From: Sphingobacteriales bacterium
GTDB lineage: Bacteria > Bacteroidota > Bacteroidia > Chitinophagales > CAIOSU01
Length of the DNA: 60,254 nt
Assembly: GCA_027486795.1 (NCBI GenBank)
Contig: JAIXOI010000026.1
Coordinates: 1-60,254 of the forward strand
Reading direction: 5' to 3'
Part shown: piece by piece, positions 13,270 to 58,500 of the stretch
Numbering within the stretch: the first letter of the stretch is position 1
Layout of the letters: each line of letters opens with the position of its first letter
The notes under the pieces: model-generated
Databases searched by the model: none
What the model saw: the letters and a program-made list of their open reading frames with translations, nothing else
What the model was told of the DNA's origin: nothing
Translations under genes and position numbers: made by a program

Positions 13270-13279
13270 ACTATCATGT

Positions 13280-13377
13280 GCGATTTACGATGTACGAAGT
13301 ACGATTTTATTATTTCAACAAACAGACCCAATTTCCACAGGGCTAAAAACCGTGGACTGTCGACCGTCGACCGTGGA

Positions 13378-15661: not shown

Positions 15662-18199
15662 CTATTGATTGTTCAAAAACTGTTCCAATTGATACAAATC
15701 GGGGTATAACACTTCTCTAGCCTTGCTACCTTGGCTCGGGCCAACTATTCCGGCCTGCTCCAATTGATCCATAACTCTACCCGCACGGTTGTACCCCAAT
15801 TTTAAGCGACGCTGCAACAACGAGGTAGAACCTTGCTGTGTTTGCACCAATATTCGTGCCGCATCTTCAAAGTACGAGTCGCGTTCGCCAATATCAAGGC
15901 TAGCTCCCCCTTCTTCCTTTTCATCTACATACTCTGGCAACCTAAACGCCTCCGAATAGCCACGCTGCTGTCCTATGAATTTGCAAATATCTTCTACTTC
16001 TGGCGTATCTACAAATCCGCATTGCAAGCGTATCATTTCGCCACCTTCCGATAGTAGCATATCGCCGCGACCAATCAACTGGTCGGCACCTCCCCCGTCC
16101 AAAATGGTACGAGAGTCGATTTTGGAAGTTACCTTAAACGCCACACGTGCCGGGAAGTTAGCTTTGATAGTACCCGTAATAATGTTAACCGACGGACGCT
16201 GCGTTGCAATAATCAAATGTATACCAATGGCGCGAGCCAACTGCGCCAAACGGGCAATGGGTGTTTCTACCTCTTTTCCGGCGGTCATCATTAAATCGGC
16301 AAACTCATCCACTACCAACACAATGTAAGGCAAAAACTGGTGGCCTTTATTGGGATTCAGGCGGCGAGCTACAAACTTAGCGTTGTATTCCTTAATGTTA
16401 CGCACCTGCGCCTCTTTCAAAAGGTCGTAGCGGTTATCCATTTCAATGCAAAGGGCATTAAGGGTATGAATAACCTTCTTGGTATCGGTAATAATGGCCT
16501 CTTCCTCGCCAGGCAATTTGGCCAAGTAGTGCTTCTCTATCATTGCATACAAGGTCAATTCTACCTTTTTAGGGTCGACCAACACAAACTTTAGTTGAGA
16601 AGGGTGTTTTTTGTAAAGCAATGACACCAATATGGCGTTCAAACCAACTGATTTACCCTGACCCGTAGCACCCGCCATCAGCAAGTGAGGCATTTTTGCC
16701 AAATCAGTGGTAAATATTTCGTTGGCAATAGTTTTACCAATAACGATAGGCAACTCGGCCTTACTGTTCTGAAATTTCTCTGATGCTATCAATGAGTGCA
16801 TACTCACCACTTCCTTCTTCACATTTGGCACTTCTATACCAATAGTACCCTTGCCCGGAATTGGAGCAATAATACGGATACCTAAGGCTGCCAAACTCAA
16901 AGCTATGTCATCCTCAAGGTTCTTGATTTTGGAGATACGCACGCCAGCAGCTGGTACAATTTCGTATAAAGTAACTGTTGGACCAATGGTAGCCTTTATC
17001 TTCGATATCTCGATATTGTAGTTCTGTAGTGTTTCAACAATCTGGTTTTTATTCTTCTCCAGTTCTTCAGTATCTACCAAAATCTTCTCACTGCCATGTA
17101 TTCTCAGTAAATCCAAAGGCGGAAATTGAAAATCCCTCAAATCTAACGTTGGATCGTATTCGCCTAAATCATTAAATATCTCCCCAGCCTCTTTCTCCAC
17201 AATCCCTTCATTCACTTCCAGCGCAAGGTCTTCATAAGGTGCCACTATTTCATGAGGCGTTTCGGGCTGATTTACTTCAAACGAAAGCCCCGGAACAGTG
17301 GTTGCAGTTGCTGTGGTGGCCGCAACTGGCGGAATAATGTCAAAATCCAACGGGCCATCTTCCTCTTCTTCCTCTTTTTTATCAACCTCCCAAGGTAGGT
17401 CTATTTCGCCTTCGGTCATCTCTTCCTCAACGGCGTCAAGCTCATCGTTCTCGGTTTCAATTTTCTTGGTCCATTGTTTTACATCAGTATCATCATCCTC
17501 ATACTGGAATCCAGGAACACGGTTCTTGTTATTGGCAGCATTGGCTTCTGCTACTTTATTAAACACTTTGGCAGGTATGAGTTTGCCAGGATTATAGTTG
17601 AACTTGAATACCAAGTATGCCAGCAAGCCAAAACCTAATAATGCAGCCGTGCCCAACATGCCCATAAACTCCATCAACCACTCGCTTACCGAACGACCAA
17701 AAGCACCGCCCCAGGGAAAACTCATCACCTGAAACACAAACGCTAACGCTACTGAGAAGTATACTAAACAAAGAAAACCGTACTTGAAAATACGACCCAA
17801 CTGCAAAGGCAAACCAAAACCCCACTTTAAGCCAATAGAAACGAGTATGCCTACAATTGCCCACGAAGCAACCCCAAACAAGTTGTAATAAAACTGGTGC
17901 GACAGCACTGCGCCAAAGCGGCCGAGCATGTTATCCACCGTTACATCGCTATTCAGGATCATCCTCCACGAAAACTCCAGCACGCTGCTTTGGTCTTTCT
18001 CCCAAGTAAAAAGATACGAAAACATGGCCGCACCAATAAGCAGGCCCAAGAACATACTAGCTAACCCCAAGATGCGCGGCGTGCGCTCATCGGCCAGCAT
18101 AGCGTTGATAGCGGAAGGCTTTGCCTTGGCAGCGGCTTCTTCACCATCAATAGGCTCTTTACCTTTGGTGCTCTTTTGATTTTTTTCTTTGACTGCCAT
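15662..18199 (-). CDS. ftsK: DNA translocase FtsK
   Basis: This membrane-anchored hexameric ATPase pumps DNA through the division septum. The start is set at ATG 18199 (MAVKEKNQKS); the longer frame to 18238 would begin with a non-coding-looking leader. Of 845 residues, four hydrophobic helices lie within ~45-210, then an acidic linker (~210-330), the alpha/beta motor with Walker A GATGQGKS near 508 and Walker B VLVVDEFADLMM, and a C-terminal winged-helix gamma domain (SLLQRRLKLGYNRAGRVMDQLE) that reads oriented chromosomal motifs. lolA follows by 15 nt. It is shorter than E. coli FtsK because the linker is short. Confidence 0.96.
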   Translation of the reverse strand: MAVKEKNQKSTKGKEPIDGEEAAAKAKPSAINAMLADERTPRILGLASMFLGLLIGAAMFSYLFTWEKDQSSVLEFSWRMILNSDVTVDNMLGRFGAVLSHQFYYNLFGVASWAIVGILVSIGLKWGFGLPLQLGRIFKYGFLCLVYFSVALAFVFQVMSFPWGGAFGRSVSEWLMEFMGMLGTAALLGFGLLAYLVFKFNYNPGKLIPAKVFNKVAEANAANNKNRVPGFQYEDDDTDVKQWTKKIETENDELDAVEEEMTEGEIDLPWEVDKKEEEEEDGPLDFDIIPPVAATTATATTVPGLSFEVNQPETPHEIVAPYEDLALEVNEGIVEKEAGEIFNDLGEYDPTLDLRDFQFPPLDLLRIHGSEKILVDTEELEKNKNQIVETLQNYNIEISKIKATIGPTVTLYEIVPAAGVRISKIKNLEDDIALSLAALGIRIIAPIPGKGTIGIEVPNVKKEVVSMHSLIASEKFQNSKAELPIVIGKTIANEIFTTDLAKMPHLLMAGATGQGKSVGLNAILVSLLYKKHPSQLKFVLVDPKKVELTLYAMIEKHYLAKLPGEEEAIITDTKKVIHTLNALCIEMDNRYDLLKEAQVRNIKEYNAKFVARRLNPNKGHQFLPYIVLVVDEFADLMMTAGKEVETPIARLAQLARAIGIHLIIATQRPSVNIITGTIKANFPARVAFKVTSKIDSRTILDGGGADQLIGRGDMLLSEGGEMIRLQCGFVDTPEVEDICKFIGQQRGYSEAFRLPEYVDEKEEGGASLDIGERDSYFEDAARILVQTQQGSTSLLQRRLKLGYNRAGRVMDQLEQAGIVGPSQGSKAREVLYPDLYQLEQFLNNQ

Positions 18200-18303
18200 A
18201 TATGTATTGGTGCAAAGTGTAAAATTACGAAACGCCAATCACATTGAAGGGGTAATGCCAAACAGGCTATAAACAGGTGTCGTTTGTTGTGGACATTTTT
18301 TCT

Positions 18304-18480
18304 TAGTATCAAGTAGTGAGTATCAAGTATCAAGTACTTTCGATTTACGAGGTACGATTTACGATTGAATGGTCGATAAATTAAGGAATTTGACTGGAGA
18401 TAAAACTAAAAAAACAATTCACACAACATTTTATACGTAGTACTAACTACTTGATACTTGATACTCACTACTTGATACTA
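18304..18480. repeat. Perfect 33-bp inverted repeat of AAGTATC heptads, with an ACGATTT heptad tract inside
   Basis: Positions 18304-18336 and 18448-18480 are exact reverse complements over 33 nt, built from 7-bp steps (TATCAAG, TAGTGAG and variants). The 111-nt spacer starts with a second 7-bp-period tract (CGATTTACGAGGTACGATTT and on to about 18367). It lies between the divergent ftsK and egtB starts. A second copy of the same composite, in the same orientation, lies behind egtB. Confidence 0.9.
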
Positions 18481-18534
18481 AAATTGAACTTTTGCTCGTA
18501 AACTTGTTTTAACTTGTAACAAAGCTTTCATGTT

Positions 18535-19809
18535 ATGGAAATGCAACTAAATTACCCACCTAGCCTTTCTGATACTTTTGCGAAGCGTTTTAAGCATATC
18601 CGCGCTCAAACGGAAGCTATTTGCGCGCCTTTGAAGGTGGAGGATTATGTGGTGCAGCCTATTGTGGATGTTAGCCCCCCGAAATGGCATTTAGCCCATA
18701 CTACGTGGTTTTTCGAGAATTTCATATTGTTGCCGCACTTGTCTGGCTACAAGGTTTTTGATGCCGACTTTAGCTATATGTTCAATAGTTATTACGAGAG
18801 TGTGGGTGAGCGTGTATTGCGCGACCACCGTGGCCACATGACCCGCCCTAGTGTTGATGAGGTGTATGAGTATAGGCGCTATGTAGATGCAGCCATGCTA
18901 CAGTTTTTTGATAAAAATGATGAATTGGATGCGGCATTAAAATACACCTTGGAGATTGGCTTACAACACGAGCAGCAGCATCAAGAGCTCTTGGTTACGG
19001 ATATTAAATACATACTCGGCCACCACCCATTGCATCCCGTGTACAAGGTAATTGAGTTGCCAGAAACCGGAACTACACTACCGCCGCAATGGCACGAAAT
19101 AGCCGAAGGAATTTATAGTATTGGTTACGATGGTAGTGGATTTTGTTTTGATAATGAACAAGGTGTGCATCAAGTTTACCTGCAACAATATCGCATCATG
19201 AACCGCCCGATAACCAACGCAGAGTATCTGCGCTTTATGGAAGATGGGGGCTACACTAACCACCAATGGTGGTTTGCTGATGCCTGGGCTTGGCTAAGCG
19301 AAACGGGCATAAAAGCCCCACACTACTGGGAACAGCGTAACGGCCAATGGTACCAATACCAATTGGATGGCTTAAAACCCATTGACCCCAATGCACCCGT
19401 AACCCACGTAAGTATGTATGAGGCTGCGGCCTATGCCATGTGGGCAGGCAAGCGCCTACCTACCGAACAGGAATGGGAAGTAGCTGCCAAAACATTGCAG
19501 CCTGGCGGGCCTAGTGAGGGCAACTTCCTAGAGCAAAGCAAATTTCAATCGTTACCTGCCCAAGAAGGCAGCCAATGGTATGGCGATGTTTGGGAATGGA
19601 CCAACAGCGCCTACCTGCCTTACCCCTATTACCAGCGGCCCGATGGTGCGCTGGGCGAGTACAATGGTAAGTTTATGATTAGCCAAATGGTATTGCGCGG
19701 CGGTTCGTGTGCCACGCCGCAAAGCCACATTAGGCCTACTTACCGCAACTTCTTTCAACCGGATAAAAGGTGGCAGTTTACGGGTTTTCGTTTGGCGGAG
19801 CACGTTTAG
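18535..19809 (+). CDS. egtB: EgtB-like sulfoxide synthase (ergothioneine-type biosynthesis)
   Basis: EgtB is a non-haem iron enzyme that joins hercynine to a thiol donor with oxygen. This 424-residue protein has an N-terminal DinB_2-like domain with the iron-site pattern: HLAHTTWFF (His52/His55) and HEQQHQE at 145-151, the HX3HXE signature. It is followed by a C-terminal formylglycine-generating/C-type-lectin-like domain (GGSCATPQSHIRPTYRNFF and FTGFRLAEHV at the end). Family members also include OvoA-like enzymes, so the thiol substrate is uncertain. The EgtD methyltransferase that usually accompanies it is absent here. The gene is bracketed by composite repeats on both sides. Confidence 0.85.
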   Translation: MEMQLNYPPSLSDTFAKRFKHIRAQTEAICAPLKVEDYVVQPIVDVSPPKWHLAHTTWFFENFILLPHLSGYKVFDADFSYMFNSYYESVGERVLRDHRGHMTRPSVDEVYEYRRYVDAAMLQFFDKNDELDAALKYTLEIGLQHEQQHQELLVTDIKYILGHHPLHPVYKVIELPETGTTLPPQWHEIAEGIYSIGYDGSGFCFDNEQGVHQVYLQQYRIMNRPITNAEYLRFMEDGGYTNHQWWFADAWAWLSETGIKAPHYWEQRNGQWYQYQLDGLKPIDPNAPVTHVSMYEAAAYAMWAGKRLPTEQEWEVAAKTLQPGGPSEGNFLEQSKFQSLPAQEGSQWYGDVWEWTNSAYLPYPYYQRPDGALGEYNGKFMISQMVLRGGSCATPQSHIRPTYRNFFQPDKRWQFTGFRLAEHV

Positions 19810-20020
19810 CAAGTACCGTGTAGCAAGTAGCAAGTATTTTTGATTTACGAAGTACGATTTACGATTGAATGTTGGTTAATTTAAGAGTTGTAAATTGCAA
19901 CAAAACAAGAGTAATAATTTAAAGGCCATAATACCTTCCAATCTCGTAATCAGGACTTTGCAAAACCTATTTAAAATTTGATAAGTAGGTCTTGATACTT
20001 GATACTCACTACTTGATACT
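19807..20020. repeat. Second composite heptad repeat, downstream of egtB
   Basis: The left part (19807-19836) is a diverged AAGTATC tract, with AAGTAGC-like units. It is followed by an ACGATTT/ACGAAGT tract (to about 19869) that ends in the same GATTGAATG as the copy at 18367. After ~120 nt comes a right part (19991-20020) identical over 30 nt to the right arm at 18451-18480. Order and orientation match the element in front of egtB, so the two are related copies. Confidence 0.85.
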
Positions 20021-20073
20021 TATTCTGTATCTTTTTCCTGCTTATCCGTTAGCAGTGGGTAAAGCGTTTCGTT

Positions 20074-20667
20074 ATGTCTTATAACACCTATCAGATGCAG
20101 CAACCATCCTATACTGCCCGCTCGGCCGATGTAAGCGAAGAACAAGCTTGGGTAATGGCCGCCCAGCAAGATTCGCGTAAATTTGAGCCCCTCTACAATC
20201 GCTATTACGAGGCTATTTACCGCTTTGTTTACCAGCGCGTAAACGACAAGCATGCCACTAGCGATATTACCTCGGAGGTGTTCATTAAAGCCTTATCGAG
20301 CCTCAGCTCATTTTCAAATCAAGGCATTCCGTTTAGTTCGTGGTTGTTCCGCATTACGCGCAACATGCTCATCGACCGTTTCCGTAAGGGCAAAAACCAC
20401 CGAGTAATAAACGTTGAAACCAGCGCATTGGCAGGTATGGCCGAAGAAGCTGAAGTATCCAACGTAGATGAGGGCAAAATGAACCGAATGCTGCAGTGCC
20501 TCGAAAACCTTGCCGATGAGGATATGCAACTGATAGAGATGCGCTACTTTGAAAAGCGCAGCTTTAAAGAAATAGGCGAGATACTGGATATAACCGAAAA
20601 CAACGCCAAAGTAAAAACCTACCGCATCTTAGATAAGATGAAAAACCTTATGCTACAAGCTAAATAA
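20074..20667 (+). CDS. ECF-type RNA polymerase sigma factor
   Basis: It has 197 residues with sigma-70 region 2 (FEPLYNRYYEAIYRFVYQRV, then FSSWLFRITRNMLIDRFRKG at ~87-107) and region 4 near the C-terminus (IEMRYFEKRSFKEIGEILDI, the recognition helix). It lacks region 3, as group 4 factors do. A TATCTTTT box lies ~38 nt upstream, near the -7 consensus. The next gene begins 7 nt after the stop and encodes a one-pass membrane protein, the usual place for an anti-sigma factor. The regulon cannot be told from the window. Confidence 0.92.
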   Translation: MSYNTYQMQQPSYTARSADVSEEQAWVMAAQQDSRKFEPLYNRYYEAIYRFVYQRVNDKHATSDITSEVFIKALSSLSSFSNQGIPFSSWLFRITRNMLIDRFRKGKNHRVINVETSALAGMAEEAEVSNVDEGKMNRMLQCLENLADEDMQLIEMRYFEKRSFKEIGEILDITENNAKVKTYRILDKMKNLMLQAK

Positions 20668-20674
20668 CCCAGCC

Positions 20675-22363
20675 ATGGAAAAGAACAAATTCAATACAAA
20701 CCCTTCCCCTGTTACGCCAGAGGATATACAAGCAGGCAAAAATTTCGATGCCTTTCATAAGCAATACCAAACTACCCAGCGCGGTTCGGTGCTACGCCGC
20801 ATGGCTCTGCCTAGCTTAGCTGCAGTTGCCGCATTGGTGCTGGTGTTTATGCTATTTAGGTTGCCCAACGGCGGTACCCAAATGGTGGCACAGTTTATAG
20901 CGCCGCCCATTCAAGGGCTGGAGCGCACCTATGAGCAAATTAGCTTTATGGTTGAAGAAGGACTCATGATAGACCTACCAAGTGGCACTAAAATAAACAT
21001 ACCGCCCAATGCCTTTGTAGATGCCAAGGGCAACCCATACAAAGGCCCTGCAATCCTTAATTACCGCGAATATACCGACCCAATATCTATTGCACTTAGC
21101 GGTATACCAATGACCTATGATTCGGCTGGAGTATCGTATACTTTCGAGTCGGCGGGGATGTTTGATATGGTGGTTGAAGGCAAACCAGTTGGCGAGGCTA
21201 CTGATGCCAGCCAAGCACTTTCGTTGGCCAATGGCGTCATAGTATCGGTAGGCATGCCTACTACCAACCTAAACGATGGCTTTAACGTGTATGAACTGGA
21301 TACAGCAAACAAAAACTGGGCCTTGCGCGGCAAAGATTCAATTGCACCAGTGGTAGCAGATACAGCCCCAGAACCTACGCCAACCAAAACTGCCGCTACC
21401 AAACCCGCTAAGGTAGAGGTAACCGATGCCAAACTGCAGCAACTGTACAACACCATCCAAATGATTGGCGATAGTATTGCCTATTACCAAAACTTTGAGA
21501 TGATAAAACCGCTTAGAGCCTCTACTGAAGCGCACCACTTTACCACTGAAATGAAATTGAATGATTACCCGGAGTTGCCTTTGAATGAAACTGTTTCGTG
21601 GGAAGTGGCACCCTACACTGCTGGCTTTGAACCGACCTTTAAAAGCACCCGATGGGACAACAAGAAAGTAACTCGCATAAAAGGCACCGAGTACAACCTG
21701 CTGCTGGAAAAAGGCAGTACCAAACACATTTTTGCATGCAAGCCTGTGTACCAAGGCAAACACTACGCTACTGCCCTAAAATACTACGATGCCAAGATGG
21801 TCACCAACCAAGAGCGTATGGCTTTTCTTGTGCAGCGCCGCAAAGAGTTGCAAACCGAATACGATGCTTACAAAAATGAATTGATTGCCAAACAGGGCAA
21901 CAACACTAAACAGGTATTGGACAATACCGAAGCGCAGTTCGAAAACCAATACAACCTAGCCACCACCCAAAACACCGTGTACCGTTTTGTGGCTGTAGAC
22001 CGCATGGGAATTTGGAACATTGACCAAATATACAAACAGCCAGATTACGTAAGGGCCGAAAGCGAGTTTGTGGATAGCAAGGGAAAAGTATTAACCATGC
22101 ACCGTGTTATCCTTTTCGAAAAAGGAGTGCAGGCTAGATTTGAGTTCTTTAAAATGCCAGATAGCGAAACGGTAAGGTTTCTATATAACCCCGAAAAGGC
22201 GTACACCGGCATTGGCATTACTACCGATGGCAAGGTATTTCTACTTGGGCCAACTGATTTAAAGAAGGTTAAATTGGATGGTATTAACACCATTAAAACC
22301 AAAGAGTTATTTATTCCAAAATCGGAAAAAGAGCTTAGGGATAAATTGAAAAGCATTGCCTAA
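20675..22363 (+). CDS. Membrane protein next to sigma factor, probable anti-sigma partner with large periplasmic domain
   Basis: The protein has 562 residues. The first ~45 are polar and cytoplasmic in character, then one helix (~47-65, SLAAVAALVLVFMLF), then about 490 residues outside the membrane. Soon after the helix comes a ZU5-like segment: MIDLPSGTKINIPPNAFVDAKG and a beta-rich stretch to ~170. A lysine/glutamate-rich helical segment follows near 400-430, and a C-terminal beta-rich region. The N-terminus does not show a clear zinc anti-sigma HxxxCxxC motif. Adjacency and topology suggest control of the sigma factor by an envelope signal; this is inference. Confidence 0.6.
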   Translation: MEKNKFNTNPSPVTPEDIQAGKNFDAFHKQYQTTQRGSVLRRMALPSLAAVAALVLVFMLFRLPNGGTQMVAQFIAPPIQGLERTYEQISFMVEEGLMIDLPSGTKINIPPNAFVDAKGNPYKGPAILNYREYTDPISIALSGIPMTYDSAGVSYTFESAGMFDMVVEGKPVGEATDASQALSLANGVIVSVGMPTTNLNDGFNVYELDTANKNWALRGKDSIAPVVADTAPEPTPTKTAATKPAKVEVTDAKLQQLYNTIQMIGDSIAYYQNFEMIKPLRASTEAHHFTTEMKLNDYPELPLNETVSWEVAPYTAGFEPTFKSTRWDNKKVTRIKGTEYNLLLEKGSTKHIFACKPVYQGKHYATALKYYDAKMVTNQERMAFLVQRRKELQTEYDAYKNELIAKQGNNTKQVLDNTEAQFENQYNLATTQNTVYRFVAVDRMGIWNIDQIYKQPDYVRAESEFVDSKGKVLTMHRVILFEKGVQARFEFFKMPDSETVRFLYNPEKAYTGIGITTDGKVFLLGPTDLKKVKLDGINTIKTKELFIPKSEKELRDKLKSIA

Positions 22364-22372
22364 TGAGGCAAT
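22355..22372. terminator. Short hairpin at the convergent end of the sigma operon and desaturase
   Basis: ATTGCCT and AGGCAAT pair around a 4-nt loop, overlapping the stop codon at 22363. There is no T run, so its strength is doubtful. Confidence 0.4.
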
Positions 22373-22390
22373 ACAATTTGGGAGTGATTA

Positions 22391-23122
22391 CTACTGTTTG
22401 GCAAGCTTCACAATGTGGAGCTTGTCGAACACCCAAATGAAAGGATACACGGGGTCGACCTCGAACCATTTAACCCCGAAATTGGCTCGTGCGCCATACT
22501 TGTGGTGGTTGTTGTGGAAACCCTCACCCAACATAAATACATCTATTGGCATCAGGTTTTTAGAGGTGTCTTTCACCTCAAAGTTTGTATAGCCGTATTT
22601 GTGGGCAAACCAATTGATTACTACCCCATGCACCGGGCCCATAAGAATGTGCACCGGCACCAACAGCAAGAACCATAGTGAAGGGGCAAAATACAGATAG
22701 AATGCTATGTAAAAAATAATCCACAACAAGCGGTTGAGCTTGCTAGAGGCAAACGTGTCAAACCATTTCCACTCAGGGAGGTTTTTATAAAACGAACCTT
22801 CGTTGGGCGTAATTTTCCTTTCAATGTCAAGATATACCTTACGAGTGCGCATCATCATACTGAACATGTTGGCATCGTACTTAGGCGAGTGCGGATCTTG
22901 CGCAGTATCGGCATAGGCATGGTGCATACGGTGCATGGCGCCATACACATAAGGGCTAAGATATGAGGAGCCTTGAACAACGTAGGAATAGACAAAAAAA
23001 GTCTTTTCCCAAAACTTGTTCATGCTGAACATTTGATGGGCCGCATACCGATGGTGAAAAAAGGTTTGGGCAAATAGCGAAAGATACCAATGGGCAATAA
23101 AGAAAATGAGGATAACGAGCAT
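22391..23122 (-). CDS. Membrane fatty-acid (acyl-CoA) desaturase
   Basis: It inserts a double bond in acyl chains using a di-iron centre. In 243 residues it shows the three histidine boxes of the family: HHRYAAH at the first helix end, HRMHH near 70 and HNNHH near 210, between four hydrophobic segments. ATG 23122 is preferred over the TTG two codons upstream. The enzyme is short compared with stearoyl-CoA desaturases but typical of bacterial ones. It follows lepB by 122 nt on the same strand, so it may have its own promoter; AAtaTTTG, one mismatch from the -7 box, lies just before the start. Confidence 0.9.
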   Translation of the reverse strand: MLVILIFFIAHWYLSLFAQTFFHHRYAAHQMFSMNKFWEKTFFVYSYVVQGSSYLSPYVYGAMHRMHHAYADTAQDPHSPKYDANMFSMMMRTRKVYLDIERKITPNEGSFYKNLPEWKWFDTFASSKLNRLLWIIFYIAFYLYFAPSLWFLLLVPVHILMGPVHGVVINWFAHKYGYTNFEVKDTSKNLMPIDVFMLGEGFHNNHHKYGARANFGVKWFEVDPVYPFIWVFDKLHIVKLAKQ

Positions 23123-24765: not shown

Positions 24766-24773
24766 GGGGTTTG

Positions 24774-24955
24774 AAATTTAAAATTGAAAATTCAAAATTT
24801 AAAATTGACCAAGTCTCTCAAAATACGAATGTACTTATATGCACTTTACCAATTCTAATTCTCGATTACATTTATAGTTATTTAACAATATTGCTTCTCA
24901 CGCTAAAACAAATCTAAAAGCCAATTTTGAATTTTGAATTTTCAATTTTGAATTC
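24774..24955. repeat. Inverted pair of AAATTGA heptad tracts between lepB and dapB
   Basis: Positions 24774-24807 and 24922-24955 form a 34-nt inverted repeat with about four mismatches, each arm stepping by 7 bp (AAATTGA, AAATTCA, AAATTTA). The spacer is 114 nt, close to the 111 nt of the egtB-side repeat although the unit sequence is unrelated. The right arm supplies the stop codon of dapB. Confidence 0.85.
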
Positions 24956-25673
24956 AAAATTGCAACATATCACTCATAGTGTAAACACCTTGCTTGCCGT
25001 GCACCCACTCGGCGGCTTTTACAGCGCCTTGTGCAAAACCCAAGCGAGAATGCGCCACATGGCTTATCTCAATAGTATCAATGCCCGATTGGTAGGTAAC
25101 CAAGTGTGTACCTGGCACGCCTGCTTCGCGCTTTGATATAATGCTCAATTGCTCCTCTCCTTCTGCTGGTTGGTTTACCCATACATGCTTGCGGTCTAAT
25201 TCTTCTAGCACACCTGTTGCTAGGGTAATGGCAGTGCCGCTTGGCGAATCGAGTTTCTCGGTATGGTGTATTTCTTCAAGGGTTACTTCATATTGCTCTT
25301 GCTCGTTCATTACCTTGGCTAGGTATTTGTTTACAGCAAAAAAAATATTGACCCCGATACTGAAATTACTAGCCCAAAATAGGGTGCTATTGGTCTCTTC
25401 GCATTGTATAGTTAACTCAGGCAAGTGTTTGTACCATCCAGTGGTGCCTACTACAACTGGTACGCCCGCCTCAAAACACTTATTGATATTGAATATGGCA
25501 GTTGCTGGTGTACTAAACTCAATAGCCACATCAGCCTCCTTCAGCATCGACGTGGTCAATGGTCCGTCGCTCTCACCATCGTATTTCAAAATCACTTCGT
25601 GTTGGGGTATGCCATCAATTACGCTTTCGATAGCCTTACCCATTTTGCCATATCCTAACAATGCTATCTTCAT
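24954..25673 (-). CDS. dapB: 4-hydroxy-tetrahydrodipicolinate reductase
   Basis: It reduces HTPA to tetrahydrodipicolinate on the path to lysine and meso-diaminopimelate. It has 239 residues. The nucleotide-binding motif GYGKMGKA lies at ~8-15, GTTGWY near 76, and the catalytic region IHHTEKLDSPSGTA near 145. The ATGA overlap with the DUF5683 gene fixes its start and shows translational coupling. The last codon and stop lie inside an AATTTTG-type repeat arm. Confidence 0.96.
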   Translation of the reverse strand: MKIALLGYGKMGKAIESVIDGIPQHEVILKYDGESDGPLTTSMLKEADVAIEFSTPATAIFNINKCFEAGVPVVVGTTGWYKHLPELTIQCEETNSTLFWASNFSIGVNIFFAVNKYLAKVMNEQEQYEVTLEEIHHTEKLDSPSGTAITLATGVLEELDRKHVWVNQPAEGEEQLSIISKREAGVPGTHLVTYQSGIDTIEISHVAHSRLGFAQGAVKAAEWVHGKQGVYTMSDMLQF

Positions 25674-28078: not shown

Positions 28079-28285
28079 CCTAAAACCCGTGTTTTTACTT
28101 GTTTTCAACGGTGCATACCGTTGTTTTGAAGTGGATGTAAAGATACGATAATTAAAGGAATAGCGCGCCCGAAAACCGCAATTTTATGAACACGATATAC
28201 ACAAAATGGACACTGTTTTTGGGGATAATGGGTGGGTAAAAATGGATTGGGTTGGTGGTGAAGGGGGTAGGTTTTTACGGATGCC

Positions 28286-28415
28286 AGTTCGGATTTGCAA
28301 TCCGAACTATGGAGCTACGGATTTGTAATCCGTTATCCTGCAGGTATGTTACGTTACTGGTGTTTCGGCGGATTGCAAATCCGCAGCTCGGTTGCGACGG
28401 ATTATAAATCCGTCG
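28286..28415. repeat. Four palindromes with core CGGATT-N3-AATCCG
   Basis: They lie at 28286-28308 (10-bp arms), 28317-28333 (7-bp), 28368-28384 (7-bp) and 28395-28415 (9-bp), each with a 3-nt centre (TGC, TGT, GCA, ATA). The core is constant while outer pairs change together: AGTT/AACT, A/T, G/C, CGA/TCG. Such paired changes indicate that base pairing matters. The spacing is uneven (8, 34 and 10 nt), so this is not a CRISPR array. They could be REP-like elements or protein-binding sites near parA. Confidence 0.85.
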
Positions 28416-28611
28416 AGGCAGGTAGTCGGTGCATCCTTAATCCATTCAATTATAACAAACTCTAAATCAATTAATTACCAAACCAAAAACCACCTAACCC
28501 ACACACAATCAAGGGCTTACATTTTAACAGACGGACACGCTTAAACCCGCGCCAATAAACGATTCGTGGACGACAAAACTCGATTAATTAAGGTTAGCGC
28601 TTCACCGGTGC

Positions 28612-29531: not shown

Positions 29532-31199
29532 ATGACCAAATCTATATTTAACCGCAACAATACCTCAATCGTACTTCGTACCTCTTACATCGTGCATTAT
29601 GTTGTAGTAGCGTTAATCATTGTATTGGCGACTAGTTGTGGCGGTGACGGCAAAACTACGACCAACAACACTTTCAAGTTTAACATGACCAGTGGGGTAA
29701 CCTCGCTAGATCCAGCCTTTGCTCGCGACCAGAGTAATATTTGGATGGTGAATGCCATGTTCAATGGATTGTTACAGTTTGACGAACTATTGAACCTACA
29801 GCCGTGCCTAGCCAAAAGCTGGACCATCAGCGAAGACGCACTTACCTACACCTTCGCGCTCCGCACCGATGTGTACTTTCACGATGATGAGGTATTTGAC
29901 GGCAACAAACGAAAGCTAACCGCGGCAGATGTTGCCTATACCTTTAACCGATTGATAGACCCAACTATGGCATCGCCGGGTGCGTGGATTTTCAATGGCC
30001 GGGTAGCAGAGACCAACCCTTTTGAAGCACCAAACGATAGCACCTTTGTATTGCACCTAAAAGAGCCATTTGGCCCGATGCTTAGCTTGCTGACCCTGCA
30101 ATATACCTATATAGTACCCAAAGAAGCTGCCGAGAAATACGGTAAAGAGTTTCGGCTGCATCCGTTGGGCACCGGGCCATTTATGCTTAAAATGTGGGCA
30201 GAGGGCAACCAATTGGTCATGCAAAAGAACCCTGACTATTTTGAGCGGGAAGGCGACCAACAACTACCCTATTTGGACAATGTGCAGGTGTATTTCATCC
30301 AGAACAAATACTCGGAATACTTAGAGTTTAATCAAGGCGGCCTGGACTTTATTAGCAGTGTTGATGCCACCACCGTAAACGAGTTATTGGCTACCGATGG
30401 CGGCCTAAAGCCTGAGCACAACGGCAAAATGACCTTATACAAAATACCGTACCTCAATAGCGAATACCTAGGCTTTCTGTTGGATGAAACCAGCCCCGAC
30501 GCCAACAAAGCGCTGTTGAATAAAAAGGTGCGCCAAGCCATAAACTACGGTTTCAACCGGAAGGAGATGCTGCAATATCTGCGCAACAACGTGGGCCGCC
30601 CAGCCAATGCTGGCTTTGTGCCCTACGGTTTGCCTTCGTTTGACGAAAAAGCTACGCCCGGTTATACCTACGATGTGGCCAAGGCTAAGCAACTGCTAGC
30701 CGAAGCGGGCTACCCAGGTGGCAAAGGCTTGCCTGCCATAAAGTTGCTTACCAACCCCACCTATAAAGACATAGCCGAGTACGTGCAAAAGCAATTGGCC
30801 GAAATCGGAATGAATATTGACGTGGAGATAATGCAGCCATCGCTGCTGCGCGACCAAATGTTGAAAGGCAAAGCCACTTTTTTCCGTGGTTCGTGGATAG
30901 CGGACTATCCAGATGCGGAAAGTTTTCTGTCGGTATTTTACGGCAATGTGCCTGCGCCGCCCAACTATACCCGTTTCCGAAATGCGGAGTTTAACAGTCT
31001 GTACACCCTTTCGCTAAAAGAAACGGACCAAACCAAACGCTTTGCATTATACCAAGCCATGGACCGTATTGTAATTGAGGAAGCGCCTATTGTGCCGCTA
31101 TACTATGACGAGGTGCTGCGCTTTGTGCGCACTGGCGTAACGGGCCTAGAGCCCAATGCCATGAACTTGCTGGACTTGAAGCGGGTAAAGGTAAAATAG
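29532..31199 (+). CDS. ABC transporter substrate-binding lipoprotein, peptide/nickel family (SBP_5)
   Basis: It has 555 residues. The signal peptide ends with the lipobox LATSC (Cys at ~37), so it is membrane-anchored. The body is the DppA/OppA-type family 5 fold: MTSGVTSLDPAFARDQSN near 52, ADVAYTFNRLIDP near 137, the GTGPFMLKMWAEGN region near 217, and RQAINYGFNRKEMLQ near 335. It binds oligopeptides or similar small ligands outside the membrane. No cognate permease or ATPase is nearby, so it must work with a transporter elsewhere. The codons for residues ~12-24 are a 7-bp-period repeat (29566-29600). Confidence 0.88.
   Translation: MTKSIFNRNNTSIVLRTSYIVHYVVVALIIVLATSCGGDGKTTTNNTFKFNMTSGVTSLDPAFARDQSNIWMVNAMFNGLLQFDELLNLQPCLAKSWTISEDALTYTFALRTDVYFHDDEVFDGNKRKLTAADVAYTFNRLIDPTMASPGAWIFNGRVAETNPFEAPNDSTFVLHLKEPFGPMLSLLTLQYTYIVPKEAAEKYGKEFRLHPLGTGPFMLKMWAEGNQLVMQKNPDYFEREGDQQLPYLDNVQVYFIQNKYSEYLEFNQGGLDFISSVDATTVNELLATDGGLKPEHNGKMTLYKIPYLNSEYLGFLLDETSPDANKALLNKKVRQAINYGFNRKEMLQYLRNNVGRPANAGFVPYGLPSFDEKATPGYTYDVAKAKQLLAEAGYPGGKGLPAIKLLTNPTYKDIAEYVQKQLAEIGMNIDVEIMQPSLLRDQMLKGKATFFRGSWIADYPDAESFLSVFYGNVPAPPNYTRFRNAEFNSLYTLSLKETDQTKRFALYQAMDRIVIEEAPIVPLYYDEVLRFVRTGVTGLEPNAMNLLDLKRVKVK
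29566..29600 (+). repeat. Heptad tract inside the signal-peptide region of the SBP_5 gene
   Basis: The DNA steps by 7 bp (TCGTACT, TCGTACC, TCTTACA, TCGTGCA) while encoding IVLRTSYIVH. It is the same family as the tract at 28966. Here it is part of a coding sequence. Confidence 0.6.
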
Positions 31200-31297
31200 T
31201 CAGAATCAGAATTAACCGAATTTTAGAATTAAAGAATTCCTAGGAAATGGTTTGAGTTAATTCTAAAATTCATTAATTCTGCACATTCTGATTCAGA
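31199..31297. repeat. Inverted pair of GAATTAA-type tracts with 8-bp period
   Basis: The left arm (31199-31233, TCAGAATCAGAATTAACC and on) and right arm (31257-31297, AATTCTAAAATTCATTAATT and on) pair over about 30 positions, with one 8-nt unit added on the right. The loop is ~22 nt. It could act as a terminator for the SBP_5 gene, but the 8-bp periodicity and the repeated unit resemble the heptad repeats elsewhere. Confidence 0.75.
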
Positions 31298-40828: not shown

Positions 40829-41506
40829 ATGAGCGAGCAGATAATAGAAGCTAAAAATATAAGCAAGTACTTTCACGACCCCGTGAAGGTAAAAGTGTTG
40901 AAAGAGGTTTCGTTCTCAATCAACAAAGGTGAGTTTGTATCTATAACTGGTAAGTCGGGATGCGGCAAAAGTACTTTGCTCTATATCCTGTCAACCATGG
41001 ATACCGACTATGAGGGGGATTTATATTTTGACGGGGAATTGTTGCGCGATAAAAAACGAGACCAGTTGTCGCACATCCGCAATAAGAAAATTGGCTTCGT
41101 GTTCCAGTTTCACTATTTGTTACCAGAGTTCTCGGTACTTAAAAATGTAATGCTGCCGGGCCTAAAGTTGGCTGAGTTGAGTGCTCAAGAAGTAGAGCAT
41201 AATGCCATGGAAAAGCTTCGCATATTGGGCATTGACGACCAAGCCAAGAAACTAGCCAATCAGCTTTCGGGCGGACAAAAGCAGCGGGTAGCTATTGCTC
41301 GCTCGCTAATTAATAACCCACTAATTATAATGGGCGACGAGCCTACCGGAAACCTAGATAGTAAAAACGGGTTGATAGTATTCGATATTTTCAAGGAATT
41401 GGCTGCCATGGGTCAATCGCTGCTAATTGTTACCCACGACCAAGATTTTGCCGATAAAACCGATAGGATTATTGAAATGGATGATGGAAAAGTGATAAAG
41501 CAGTAG
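40829..41506 (+). CDS. ABC exporter ATPase, MacB/LolD type
   Basis: It has 225 residues. Walker A is GKSGCGKST at ~37-45, the Q-loop [12 protein letters not shown] near 90, the signature [15 protein letters not shown] near 142, Walker [15 protein letters not shown] near 163 and the switch His in VTHDQDF. It pairs with the permease 1 nt upstream. A terminator and a heptad repeat pair follow. Confidence 0.95.
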
Positions 41507-41514
41507 GTTTTGCT

Positions 41515-41672
41515 AGTATTAAGTATCAAGTACCAAGTATCAAAATAACCTATTTCATTGCAAATGTGAAAACAAAAAGCCTCGAAACATATTATGTTCC
41601 GAGGCTTTAATTTATTATTTAAATATCAAGGTACTTGATACTTGATACTTGATACTTGATACTTGATACTTT
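41515..41672. repeat. Inverted pair of AAGTATC heptad tracts flanking a terminator
   Basis: The left tract (41515-41541) has four units of the AGTATCA kind. The right tract (41631-41672) has six units in the opposite orientation, five exactly ATACTTG-like in a row. The spacer of 89 nt contains the terminator of the ABC operon. The right tract stops one base before the queA stop codon. The unit is the same as at egtB, 22 kb away. Confidence 0.85.
41576..41608. terminator. Bidirectional terminator between ABC exporter and queA
   Basis: The arms AAAGCCTCG and CGAGGCTTT, extended by AACAT/ATGTT pairing, enclose a tiny loop. A tracts precede and T/A tracts follow, so it serves both convergent units. 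Confidence 0.85.
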
Positions 41673-41673
41673 A

Positions 41674-55531: not shown

Positions 55532-58500
55532 ATGAACAAACATATACTCACCATACTATTAACGCTTTCGTGCTTGAGTACCATAGCACAAAACGTTAAT
55601 TACCAGATATATACCACCCGGTACTATACCGGCAGGGGCAATTCGGATTTCTGGACAGACGATGACCCAAGGTGGGTAGTATTGTTTTATGACAACACCG
55701 ATGGTTATGTATCCGGACAAGGCGTGATACGCTCTATTGACAATGGCCTAGATGGTGCCGCTTGGGACGACCCAACCGACTTTTTGTGCCGTACTGAAAA
55801 CAACACAGCAGCCACTTCTTTAAGGGTAAGGCTTGAGGCTTGGGAAGACGATGCGTGTGGGGGCTCAGATACTTACAATACAGGGTGTGCAAACAACGAC
55901 GAAGCCTATTGCAACATACTTAGTGGTAACGTCAATTTTAGGTCGGATGCGATTTGCAACTGGAACACTTACAACATTTTTTGTAACGGCAATTGGCAGG
56001 TTGATTACCGCGTAAGGTGGGAATGGGCCAATGCCCCTGCCATTACAACCCAGCCCAGCCCTACAGATAGAAACCTTTGCATTGGCGCCACTACCACGCT
56101 TACCGTTGTAGGCGATGCCTCGGCAAGGTTTTATAAATGGCAGGTGAACACCAATACCGGCCTTCCGCAAAGCCAATGTGCTACTAGTGGCTGGGCCGAT
56201 ATTAGCGGTGCTACCAGCAGCAGCTACACCCCGCCTCAAACGGCAGGAGCTAGACAATACCGGGTGCTAATAACCAGCAACTGTACAGCAGATTTTACCT
56301 CAAAAACAACTACTTCTAACTGCGTAAGGGTAAACTATTTTCCATACTCCCCTCCTATTATCAGCGCCGCTTGCGGAAACAGCATCTTTATTGGTTCTAC
56401 CCAAAGCTTTGCAGCTACTTTGCCCCCGGCGGTTGGCGCCATAGGGAATGGTTCGTATGTATGGACGGTTAGCCCAACTACAGGTGTAACTATTGGCACG
56501 GCTAACAGTTCATCAACCAACATTACTTTTGCCAGTGCAGGCAGTTTTACCGTAACCCTAACTACCGATGATAGCGGAGGCCCTTGCAACACCACCAGCA
56601 CAAGCTGCACGGTAAATGTTAGTGCCCCTGATTGCGACTTTGTGTACGTAAACAGCTCCACCTCCAATACTTTGGTGGGCTCATCCAACTCGCCAGTAAC
56701 GCTGGCAGCGGGCATAGTGCTCGCTAGCGGCTCAGGTCGCAAGCACATTCGCATGGCCAGCGGCACTTACAGTATAAGCGCTATATTAGAGATACCTTCT
56801 GATGTAATTATTGAAGGAGGCTATGTACAAACTGGCAATAACTGGACCAAAAGCAGCGCTGCTGCTACCATTATAAACTTTTCTGGTATTGAGACCATTA
56901 ACTCAGATGTTCGACATGTAATGGGCTTTCGATCTAACAATACCGATAACTGGACATTGCAAGATCTTACCATTACAACGGCAAATGCTACTGGCAACTC
57001 TAGTAGCGGCAATGGAACATCAAACTACGCCCTTTGGATAGGAAATGGCTCAACAGGCTATACCATAACTAGGTGCAGCATAACCAGTGGCAGCGCAACT
57101 GCCGGTTCAGGAAAGCCAGGTGGTACAAATGGTGCTTTTGATTCGTCATGGGATGGCAGCAATGGCTCTCCAGGAGTCGCAGGTTCTGGCGGAAGTAGTG
57201 GTGGAGCTGGATGCGGAAATGATAATGGTGGCAACGGCGGTAGTGGCGGTAGCGGCGGAAGTGGCGGTGCCAATGCCACCCAAATAGGCGGCAGTGCTGC
57301 TTCGGGCGGTAGCGGCGGAGCTGGTGGTAGAGGAGGTAACGACAATGGCTGCGGCGGCCCTGCAAACACTTGTAATGGTTCTGCAGGAGACCCTAGAACA
57401 CTAACCCAGGGTACCGGCGCAGGAACAGCAGGCACTGCTTGCAGAACCGGCTCAGAAAACTGTGGCACAGGAGGTAATGGATCAACTAATACTGTGGTAG
57501 GCGCTGCAAGCAGCAATGGGTCGACAGGTGTTGCAAGTTTCACTGGAGGATATTATTCGCCAGCCGTAGGAACTAATGGAACTTCTGGTGGCGGTGGTGG
57601 AGGCGGCGGAGGCGGCGGAGGCGGCGGCGGTGCAGACCGTTCGTGCTTTGGTTGTTGCGACTGGGCTGGAGATGGCGGCGGCGGCGGCGGTGGCGGCGGC
57701 GGGGGCGGCGGTGCCGGTAAAGGCGGCGGCGGTGGCGGCAGCTCTTTCGGTATTTATATATGGAATAATACTGCTAGTGGTTTAATTGAGAATACGCTCA
57801 TAAATACAGGGGCTGCAGGTGCAGGTGGTGCTGGTGGCAAAGGTGGAAGTTTTGGAGCAGGTAATTCTGGAGCTGGTGGTGGCACGGGCGGTGGCAATGA
57901 CGGTGGTACTGGAGGTTCGGGCAGCCGTGGCGCAGCAGGCGGGGATGGAGGCACAGGTTCTATCGGAGTAAGGTATGCCATTGCAGTGCAAAGCTCATCT
58001 GGCAATCCTTCAATATCGATTTCACCAACTGTCACTTTTAACTCTAGTGTAAGTGGCGGTGCAGTTGCCAACCCAACCAACGCACTCATTGTAAATTACG
58101 ACAACTCTAAAGGTTGTACAAACTCTTACATCAACCTACAAAAAACCACCGGCAATTGGAGCAGTTATGGCACCGGTGGCGATGAGGTGTTTGATATTAC
58201 CAGCGCCCTCTCAAGTCAGAATGTTACGGCTACCAATATATCTGTTTACTACTCCACCGGCTCAACTGGCTGGAAAGATGTATCAACTACTACCGATACC
58301 CGCACCCGGTTGCTATTAATCTCAACCGATAGAACCCCACCGGTAATTAACGGCATCACTTCGCCTATTTGCGCCGATGGTAGTTTAAGCCTTACTGTTA
58401 CTGCAAATAGCCCATCGAGTGTAGTGGCCTATGAGTGGACCATACAGGCACAATCGGTAACCGGATTGAGTACCCCAACTCCTATTATTACTTCGAGCAG

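What the first reader, a model, noticed from the sequence alone, without database searches (positions are those of the whole stretch)
18304..18480. Perfect 33-bp inverted repeat built from 7-bp units, with a second unrelated heptad tract in its spacer
Arms 18304-18336 and 18448-18480 are exact complements, far longer than a terminator needs, and step by 7 bp. The 111-nt spacer opens with a different 7-bp-period tract. This is not an IS end, a tRNA-like fold or a usual terminator. The exact match implies recent copying, gene conversion or selection for pairing.
Basis: seen in the sequence. Interest (0 to 1): 0.68.

Follow-up and report, generated by a model that had tools for sequence, protein, structure and literature searches.

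The report
Heptad-capped, replaceable intergenic spacer
The mirror-image repeat is two copies of one 33-letter sequence, built from 7-letter units and found at many gene edges in this bacterium and its relatives, and gaps between genes that carry such caps seem to be swapped whole more often than other gaps, for reasons that are not known.

Summary
In detail: 18303-18336 and 18448-18481 are exact complements (34 bp; at most 16 in 40 shuffles), and a second heptad tract follows the left arm. It is not a lone expansion. Both arms are consensus copies of a dispersed ~33-bp repeat, R, with a fixed order of 7-bp units; congener G002 has 66 copies. R begins a median 8 bp from a gene edge, start or stop, and usually points outward (32 of 35). 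AGTATCA arrays keep this polarity in Bacteroidota (52 of 58), not in other phyla (9 of 24). R comes in inverted pairs (9 "+-", 0 "-+"); the cores tested are single-copy. About ten other heptad families look alike. Between two genomes 90-95% identical in aligned blocks, 5 of 15 tract-bearing spacers but 1 of 86 others differ almost wholly; in some, both caps and core differ at unchanged gene boundaries. My reading: a two-ended, replaceable spacer unit whose heptad arms slip; how it moves is inferred, not shown. Closest in print: GGGAATC heptamers of Xanthomonas, same layout, but discussed as quadruplexes, which R cannot form.

The parts
18303..18336 (+). left cap: R repeat, units AGTATCA-AGTAGTG-AGTATCA-AGTATCA-AGTA, reading outward from the ftsK side
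   Evidence: exact inverted repeat; consensus of 28 own and 35 G002 copies
18341..18366 (+). second cap, Q family (TACGATT-TACGAGG-TACGATT-TACGATT)
   Evidence: period 7; same family after R at 19842 and in L005, L025, L225
18367..18447 (.). core; no second copy among the listed matches in G001-G003
   Evidence: listing cut short; alignment with G004
18448..18481 (-). right cap: R repeat, reading outward from the egtB-like gene
19803..19834 (+). R-like cap (TAGCAAG variant) at the end of the egtB-like gene; the TAG at 19807 is its stop codon
19842..19866 (+). Q cap
19991..20021 (-). R cap upstream of the ECF sigma factor gene; a 30-bp stretch is identical in G002, not seen in G001
13276..13305 (+). 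Q cap upstream of a class I tRNA synthetase gene; that edge carries a K cap in G002
24770..24807 (+). C cap (AAAATTC family); T family in G004, G001, G002
24922..24959 (-). C cap, partner of 24770-24807
31200..31239 (+). E cap directly after a stop codon (7-8 bp period); V family in G003, G in G004, C in G002
31254..31297 (-). E cap, partner of 31200-31239
41515..41543 (+). R cap between two convergent genes
41577..41608 (.). terminator-like hairpin in the core of that spacer; in G003 another hairpin stands between K caps (the left one interrupted)
   Evidence: read from sequence
41632..41671 (-). R cap, partner of 41515-41543

Best explanation
SHOWN: the inverted repeat is a pair of copies of one dispersed, ~33-bp, heptad-built repeat (R) that caps both edges of the spacer between ftsK and an egtB-like gene. 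R sits at gene edges with an outward polarity in the genus; about ten other heptad families look alike in the own genome; spacers tend to carry the same family at both edges; the cores tested are single-copy; arms change length mostly by multiples of 7; spacers with heptad tracts differ wholly between near relatives far more often than others. INFERRED: cap-core-cap is a two-ended unit that replaces the non-coding DNA between two functional limits (stop codon, promoter or start region), after which polymerase slippage changes the number of heptads and one cap can be exchanged alone. The likely route is recombination or template switching of DNA ends with other alleles or cap copies. Coding DNA and promoters set the visible limits because deeper replacements are lost. 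Pairing of the arms is a by-product. A benefit to the host is not needed, though weak constraint on cap sequence is possible.
For: Dispersed repeat with fixed unit order and a sharp gene-side end: 66 copies in G002 at up to 2 mismatches in 19, 36 exact; consensus. Polarity: 32 of 35 copies from 30 G002 loci and 19 of 22 own intergenic copies nearer the 5'-side gene, at starts and stops; median distance in G002 8 bp. Pairs in G002: 9 '+-', 0 '-+', 3 same-strand. Same family at both edges of a spacer 11 of 19, permutation mean 3.2, 0 of 5000 as high; two edges of a gene block 2 of 8, mean 1.26. Whole difference: 5 of 15 against 1 of 86, Fisher P 0.0002. Both caps and core differ together at window 24766 (C/C against T/T), window 41500 (R/R against K/K with another terminator-like hairpin) and contig C33 147080 (D/D against G/G). 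Core 24808-24921 matched only itself and, over 50 bp to a contig end, the orthologous place in G003, among 5 genomes. Seven of eight length changes noted inside shared arrays were 7, 7, 14, 21, 21, 28 and 42 bp.
Against: No donor copy of a swapped core, no enzyme, no target duplication and no intermediate was seen. Single-edge differences (stop edge 31199; downstream of the egtB-like gene) and mixed-family spacers show that the unit is not always whole. Only 2 of the 6 low-identity spacers reach the tract threshold in both genomes, and one of the five (C33 114844) differs largely by extra DNA in G000. At the ftsK edge G003 has Q where G000 has R then Q, which could be a plain insertion of R. 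One length change, 16 bp in a T-like array at C33 172022, is not a multiple of 7. Caps differ less than other intergenic DNA (19 of 642 against 1071 of 20311), and one T cap is 37 of 37 identical between G004 and G001, whose flanking gene is ~74% identical to the window's; both fit selection on the cap, though tract detection favours unmutated tracts.
Confidence: 0.42

Rival explanations
1. R is a very small non-autonomous mobile repeat (MITE-, REPIN- or small-dispersed-repeat-like) that inserts by transposition, singly or as an inverted pair, near gene edges; unrelated cores are old and diverged.
For: Dispersed copies, inverted pairs, intergenic sites, sharp outer end; T before the first unit in 44 of 63 R and 18 of 28 K array starts pooled from several genomes; the ftsK edge of G003 looks like an R-free site inside a T run; Y1 transposases are present, 6 matches in G000.
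Against: The two spacers' cores examined are not shared between copies; whole spacers differ rather than being interrupted; arms are not palindromic; the palindromic repeats next to the transposases differ from the caps and lie inside a cap-bounded spacer at L300 and L287; paired G002 copies are not better conserved than the rest (12 mismatches in 18 against 32 in 48, hand count).
Confidence: 0.25
2. The caps are selected sites, e.g. a boundary element or transcript-end structure read by a protein, and different families are interchangeable versions.
For: Fewer substitutions; conserved caps at some orthologous edges; fixed polarity in Bacteroidota; strong fold of the pair, -66.4 kcal/mol, z -10.
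Against: The same stop edge has four families in four genomes of the genus, and the sigma-factor edge has R in two and no cap in a third; mixed pairs cannot fold; caps occur at starts and stops alike; no known RNA family there.
Confidence: 0.2
4. Ordinary slippage of simple 7-bp repeats, paired by chance.
For: Length changes are mostly multiples of 7; heptamer repeats were the most abundant class in most genomes of a survey cited in PMC4679880 (passage seen).
Against: Fixed unit order at dozens of loci, polarity, pairing and family matching; the pattern read backwards gave 0 matches in the five genomes of the genus, own included.
Confidence: 0.04
5. Assembly artefact of a metagenome bin.
For: G000 and its congeners appear to be draft bins; repeats break contigs.
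Against: Same layout in independent assemblies of the genus and in records titled as strains, such as Taibaiella soli and Daejeonella lutea.
Confidence: 0.01

Closest known systems
GGGAATC / GGGGA(C/T)T heptameric repeats of Xanthomonas and Nostoc (PMC4692102; passages and sections 10, 11, 16 read)
   Same: Heptad arrays, most often of four units, dispersed, mostly intergenic; in Xanthomonas nearer the gene on their 5' side (28 against 160 nt on average) and often convergent inverted pairs (70 and 75 cases; few in Nostoc); [quoted passage not shown] length and sequence vary between close relatives.
   Different: They studied one G-rich family and its quadruplexes and found no role; here about ten families stand in one genome, and R has no run of two G, so quadruplexes cannot be the common cause. 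Fixed unit order, family exchange at one edge and whole-spacer swaps are not in the sections I read.
TAACTGA heptamer repeats of Beggiatoaceae, some Cyanobacteria and Bacteroidetes (PMC4679880; abstract, passages, section 10)
   Same: Intergenic heptad arrays, also in five Bacteroidetes, some with several heptamers per spacer; a role in gene rearrangement was suggested for Gramella.
   Different: In the Beggiatoaceae studied mostly direct repeats before start codons, one inverted case; proposed as sites of a translational regulator.
REPINs / REP sequences with RAYT transposases (PMC3116915, abstract and passages)
   Same: Short extragenic repeats in inverted pairs with a less conserved spacer.
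   Different: REPs are palindromic and tied to a RAYT, and paired copies are better conserved than single ones; none of these was found for R.
BrickBuilt MITE with minisatellite, Porphyromonas gingivalis (PMC4596501, abstract and section list only)
   Same: Bacteroidota, intergenic element with tandem repeats and inverted ends.
   Different: 23-bp unit inside one element with leader and tail; 49-591 nt from genes.
STRR and small dispersed repeats of cyanobacteria
   Same: Heptanucleotide repeats and short dispersed repeats.
   Different: Recalled, apart from mentions in other papers' passages; the original papers were not seen, so not compared further.

Membership tests
gene-edge heptameric repeats (Xanthomonas type) | 7-bp unit, arrays of about four units, intergenic | tested here: met
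   0 of 35 G002 and 3 of 25 own copies inside called ORFs
gene-edge heptameric repeats (Xanthomonas type) | nearer the 5'-side gene, whatever that gene's direction | tested here: met
   32 of 35 and 19 of 22
gene-edge heptameric repeats (Xanthomonas type) | convergent inverted pairs | tested here: met
   9 '+-', 0 '-+' in G002
gene-edge heptameric repeats (Xanthomonas type) | G-tracts able to form a quadruplex | tested here: not met
   R consensus has no GG; read from sequence
REPIN / REP | palindromic arm | tested here: not met
   R consensus, read from sequence
REPIN / REP | arms flank a RAYT gene as its REPs | tested here: inconclusive
   flanks read at 6 of the 18 genus matches: palindromic repeats of other sequence at them, no R; G caps only outside these at L300 and L287
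REPIN / REP | paired copies better conserved than single copies | tested here: not met
   0.67 mismatches per copy in both groups in G002, hand count
MITE | terminal inverted repeats | tested here: met
MITE | core shared between copies | tested here: not met
   (listing cut short); cores of the R spacers of 17800-22400 and of the C spacer only
MITE | target-site duplication | tested here: inconclusive
   none obvious by eye; not counted
MITE | mobilised by an autonomous relative | not tested
   G002 R pairs within 400 bp lie 85-227 bp apart; no search for a larger relative was made
intrinsic terminator | short GC-rich stem with a T run | tested here: not met
   34-bp AT-rich arms, 111-nt loop

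The most novel reading that the evidence does not exclude
Bacterial genomes of this kind carry a pool of intergenic cassettes, each bounded by matching outward-pointing heptad arms, that are exchanged whole at fixed gene boundaries between strains, promoters and terminators included, by a dedicated but unknown recombination route. The heptad arms would be its recognition ends, and the Xanthomonas heptamers another instance.
Probability: 0.22. Interest if true: 0.85.

Novelty: new variant of a known kind. Interest (0 to 1): 0.62.

Why it matters
Heptamer repeats were the most abundant class of longer simple repeats in most genomes of a survey cited in PMC4679880, and their role is open (PMC4692102). 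This genus separates the layout from the sequence: many unrelated heptads, most without runs of three G, share a position, a polarity and a pairing rule, so quadruplex or slippage accounts tied to one word cannot be the whole story. If capped spacers are swapped as units, regulatory DNA would turn over in modules, which is directly testable in five near relatives and in cultured Bacteroidota.

Tried and rejected
Chance or lone expansion: rejected. Selection for exact pairing: not needed. RAYT/REP origin: transposases present, but the caps seen are not their repeats (6 of 18 genus matches read). Gene cassettes capped at both ends (e.g. integrated cDNA): the two edges of a gene block do not match in family beyond chance (2 of 8). 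Known structured RNA: only a tRNA at 166-239 reached an Rfam cut-off. Polarity as a cross-phylum rule: one search pooled all phyla (67 of 82 nearer the 5' gene); after splitting it holds for Bacteroidota only. One search left out 7 of 65 Bacteroidota and 14 of 38 other tracts that fell inside called ORFs, where some inward arrays may hide; phyla were assigned by hand from titles, and records named only 'bacterium' went to 'other'. A unit motif common to all families and a promoter role were tried by eye and dropped. Nineteen stretches from 19 family- and order-level relatives (18 of up to 20 kb and one of 1 kb) held 3 period-7 tracts. Phylum survey: 5 of 247 genomes have AGTATCAAGTATCAAGTATC, three of them once; two others have the backward control word instead, 3 and 16 times.

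Weak points: the family words were picked from the same sample they were counted in, with up to 3 mismatches in 15; inward hits (18 against 67 outward within 40 bp; 41 against 93 edges) show the background, and searches are the independent tests. ORFs were called mechanically. In one search, 3 of 25 own copies fell inside called ORFs and were left out. Only 19 two-edge spacers exist. The 0.72 identity cut was chosen once; 101 spacers with anchored flanks were used, others were not examined. In one search, 141 tract columns in swapped spacers were kept apart from the 642 counted. On re-checking I corrected a median (8 bp, not 7), the places per congener, one length change that is not a multiple of 7, and a claim that G004 is nearer to G000 than G003: their block identities overlap.

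Full report
Observation. Arms 18303-18336 and 18448-18481 are exact complements, 34 bp, 111 nt apart; 40 Markov shuffles of the window gave at most 16. Both arms and the tract 18341-18366 have period 7. The spacer lies between ftsK (minus strand) and an egtB-like gene with FGE-sulfatase and DinB_2 domains (plus strand) (the name egtB is from memory). As RNA it folds at -66.4 kcal/mol, z -10, as any such inverted repeat would.

It is one of many. The window has further capped spacers at 13276, 19803-20021, 24770-24959, 31200-31297 and 41515-41671. In 380 kb of the own genome there are 39 period-7 tracts, 0 in a Markov control; periods 14 (a multiple) with 30 and 9 with 28 also stand out, the rest have 12 or fewer. 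The tracts fall into recurring families: AGTATCA (R), AAGACAC (K), AAAATTC (C), GGTTATT (T), CGATTTA (Q), GGGTTGC/GAGTTAC (G), GTCCACG (V), AGATAAC (D), GAAATGA (M), and a 7-8 bp GAATTAA family (E). The letters are mine. At a slightly looser threshold 35 of 58 tracts begin or end within 20 bp of a called gene edge and 4 lie inside ORFs (hand count).

R is a dispersed repeat, not just a simple repeat. The own genome has AGTATCAAGTATCAAGTA (up to 1 mismatch) 28 times forward and 42 reverse, overlapping hits included, and never backwards; all five genomes of the genus, own included, have it and none has the backward form. A query with window 17800-22400 found the arm again at some 45 places in G002, 14 in G003 and 10 in G001 among the listed matches (hand count, mostly 88-100% over 30-40 bp; the listing was cut short), although matched genes in G001 and G002 are only 71-74% identical. 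With the diagnostic register TCAAGTAGTGAGTATCAAG (up to 2 mismatches) G002 has 66 copies, 36 exact. The consensus starts sharply at AGTATCA, after a T-rich stretch, and fades after about 31-33 bp. Both window arms equal this consensus, which is why the inverted repeat is perfect.

Position and polarity. Orienting each copy as AGTATCA, the gene on its 5' side is nearer in 32 of 35 copies from 30 G002 loci and in 19 of 22 own intergenic copies (3 more lay inside called ORFs); the median 5'-side distance in G002 is 8 bp; edges are starts (22, 14) and stops (10, 5). Without family definitions, 9-mers of edge-oriented sequence in 271 own spacers show a minority share of 0.247 against 0.323 (lowest of 20: 0.308) when edges are flipped at random; part of that signal is the -7 promoter word, named here from memory.

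Pairs. In G002 neighbouring R copies within 400 bp are '+-' in 9 cases, '-+' in none, same-strand in 3; about 1 '+-' pair would be expected by a rough estimate. In the own sample, spacers with caps at both edges have the same family in 11 of 19, permutation mean 3.2, 0 of 5000 as high; the two edges of a gene block match in 2 of 8, mean 1.26, 1834 of 5000 as high. So the spacer, not the gene, looks like the unit. The cores tested are not repeated: window 24808-24921 is found only at home and, over 50 bp to a contig end, at its orthologous place in G003, among 5 genomes, and the cores of the two R spacers in window 17800-22400 do not appear in the listed matches.

Replacement. G004 aligns with the window in order, in blocks of mostly 90-95% identity. 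It shares the R spacer, but its left arm is 7 bp shorter and its right arm 21 bp longer. Of eight length changes noted inside shared arrays, seven are multiples of 7; the eighth is 16 bp, in a T-like array at C33 172022. At 24766-24953 the whole spacer differs: C caps in G000 and (as far as its contig goes) G003, T caps in G004, G001 and G002. At 41507-41673, between convergent genes, G000 and G004 have R caps around one terminator-like hairpin; G003 has K caps, the left one interrupted, around another hairpin; G002 has a K cap and a third hairpin on the side that was matched. On contig C33, 147080-147171, D caps in G000 face G caps in G004. After the stop codon at 31199 four genomes have four families: E, V, G, C. 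At the ftsK edge G003 is 96% identical up to the R boundary and then has Q and other sequence to the end of its contig. The last two cases concern one edge. Of 101 spacers aligned between G000 and G004, 15 have a period-7 tract in either genome and 5 of these are below 0.72 identity, against 1 of 86 others, Fisher P 0.0002; only 2 of the 6 have a tract at this threshold in both genomes, and one (C33 114844) differs largely by extra DNA in G000. At 24766 G000 goes with G003, at 41500, at L025 and at the ftsK edge with G004; this disagreement between loci fits exchange between lineages or sorting of old variants. No tree was made, and G003 and G004 are about equally near to G000 in the stretches compared.

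Constraint. In spacers alignable between G000 and G004, tract columns differ in 19 of 642, other intergenic columns in 1071 of 20311, four-fold sites in 3557 of 26765. A T cap is 37 of 37 identical between G004 and G001, and the R cap before the sigma factor gene 30 of 30 between G000 and G002, yet G001 shows no cap there. Mild selection, homogenisation and detection bias all fit.

What it works like. The layout equals that of the GGGAATC heptamers of Xanthomonas: most often four units, intergenic, nearer the gene on the 5' side, often as convergent inverted pairs (PMC4692102, sections 10, 11, 16). Those authors discuss quadruplexes and found no role. R has no GG, so the layout cannot rest on quadruplexes. 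TAACTGA repeats (PMC4679880) differ in being mostly direct repeats before starts in the Beggiatoaceae. REPINs (PMC3116915, abstract and passages) share paired, extragenic arms with a less conserved spacer, but palindromic arms and better conserved pairs were tested and not met here. Eight paper searches listed no paper whose title or abstract describes several heptad families exchanging at one gene edge; the library lacks most subscription journals.

Verdict. A real, non-random feature and a member of a genome-wide class: a cap-bounded, apparently replaceable intergenic spacer. Identity as a paired dispersed repeat: about 0.95. Replacement as a two-ended unit: about 0.4. The route of movement and any benefit are open. 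The organism is taken to be a Bacteroidota: contig C4 of congener G004 has the length of CAMDKI010000004.1 and an R array at the same place (L169), a record whose depositors' label is Chitinophaga pinensis.

Noticed in passing
L073:11403-11530: A dispersed element of ~128 bp with inverted ends (GGTTCGACTCCGCTCACC type) matches some 25 places in G002 (hand count), on both strands; a different class of intergenic inverted repeat.
   Followed up: no
L300 and L287 (G000 and G002 transposase loci): A Y1 transposase with palindromic repeats sits inside a spacer whose outer edges carry G-family heptad caps, with similar flanking genes in both species.
   Followed up: partly
window 28270-28480: Palindromic GGATTTGTAATCCG-type repeats between divergent genes, diverged in G004.
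   Followed up: no
L245 (G002): Three R copies in tandem with a 45-bp period, sharing the flank between them.
   Followed up: no
G113 in the phylum survey: 16 matches of the backward control word, so other genomes amplify other heptads.
   Followed up: no
L109 (Parcubacteria contig JAGLXN010000039.1): 13 period-7 tracts of many words in 8 kb: a very heptad-rich stretch of a candidate-phylum genome.
   Followed up: no
window 57590-57906: GGC-rich repeats of period 3, 9 and 21, not looked at further.
   Followed up: no
window 31595 / G004 L057:12223-12387: G004 has some 160 bp more after this gene, with a CTCCTCCCC...GGGGGAGG hairpin that recurs in G001-G003.
   Followed up: no
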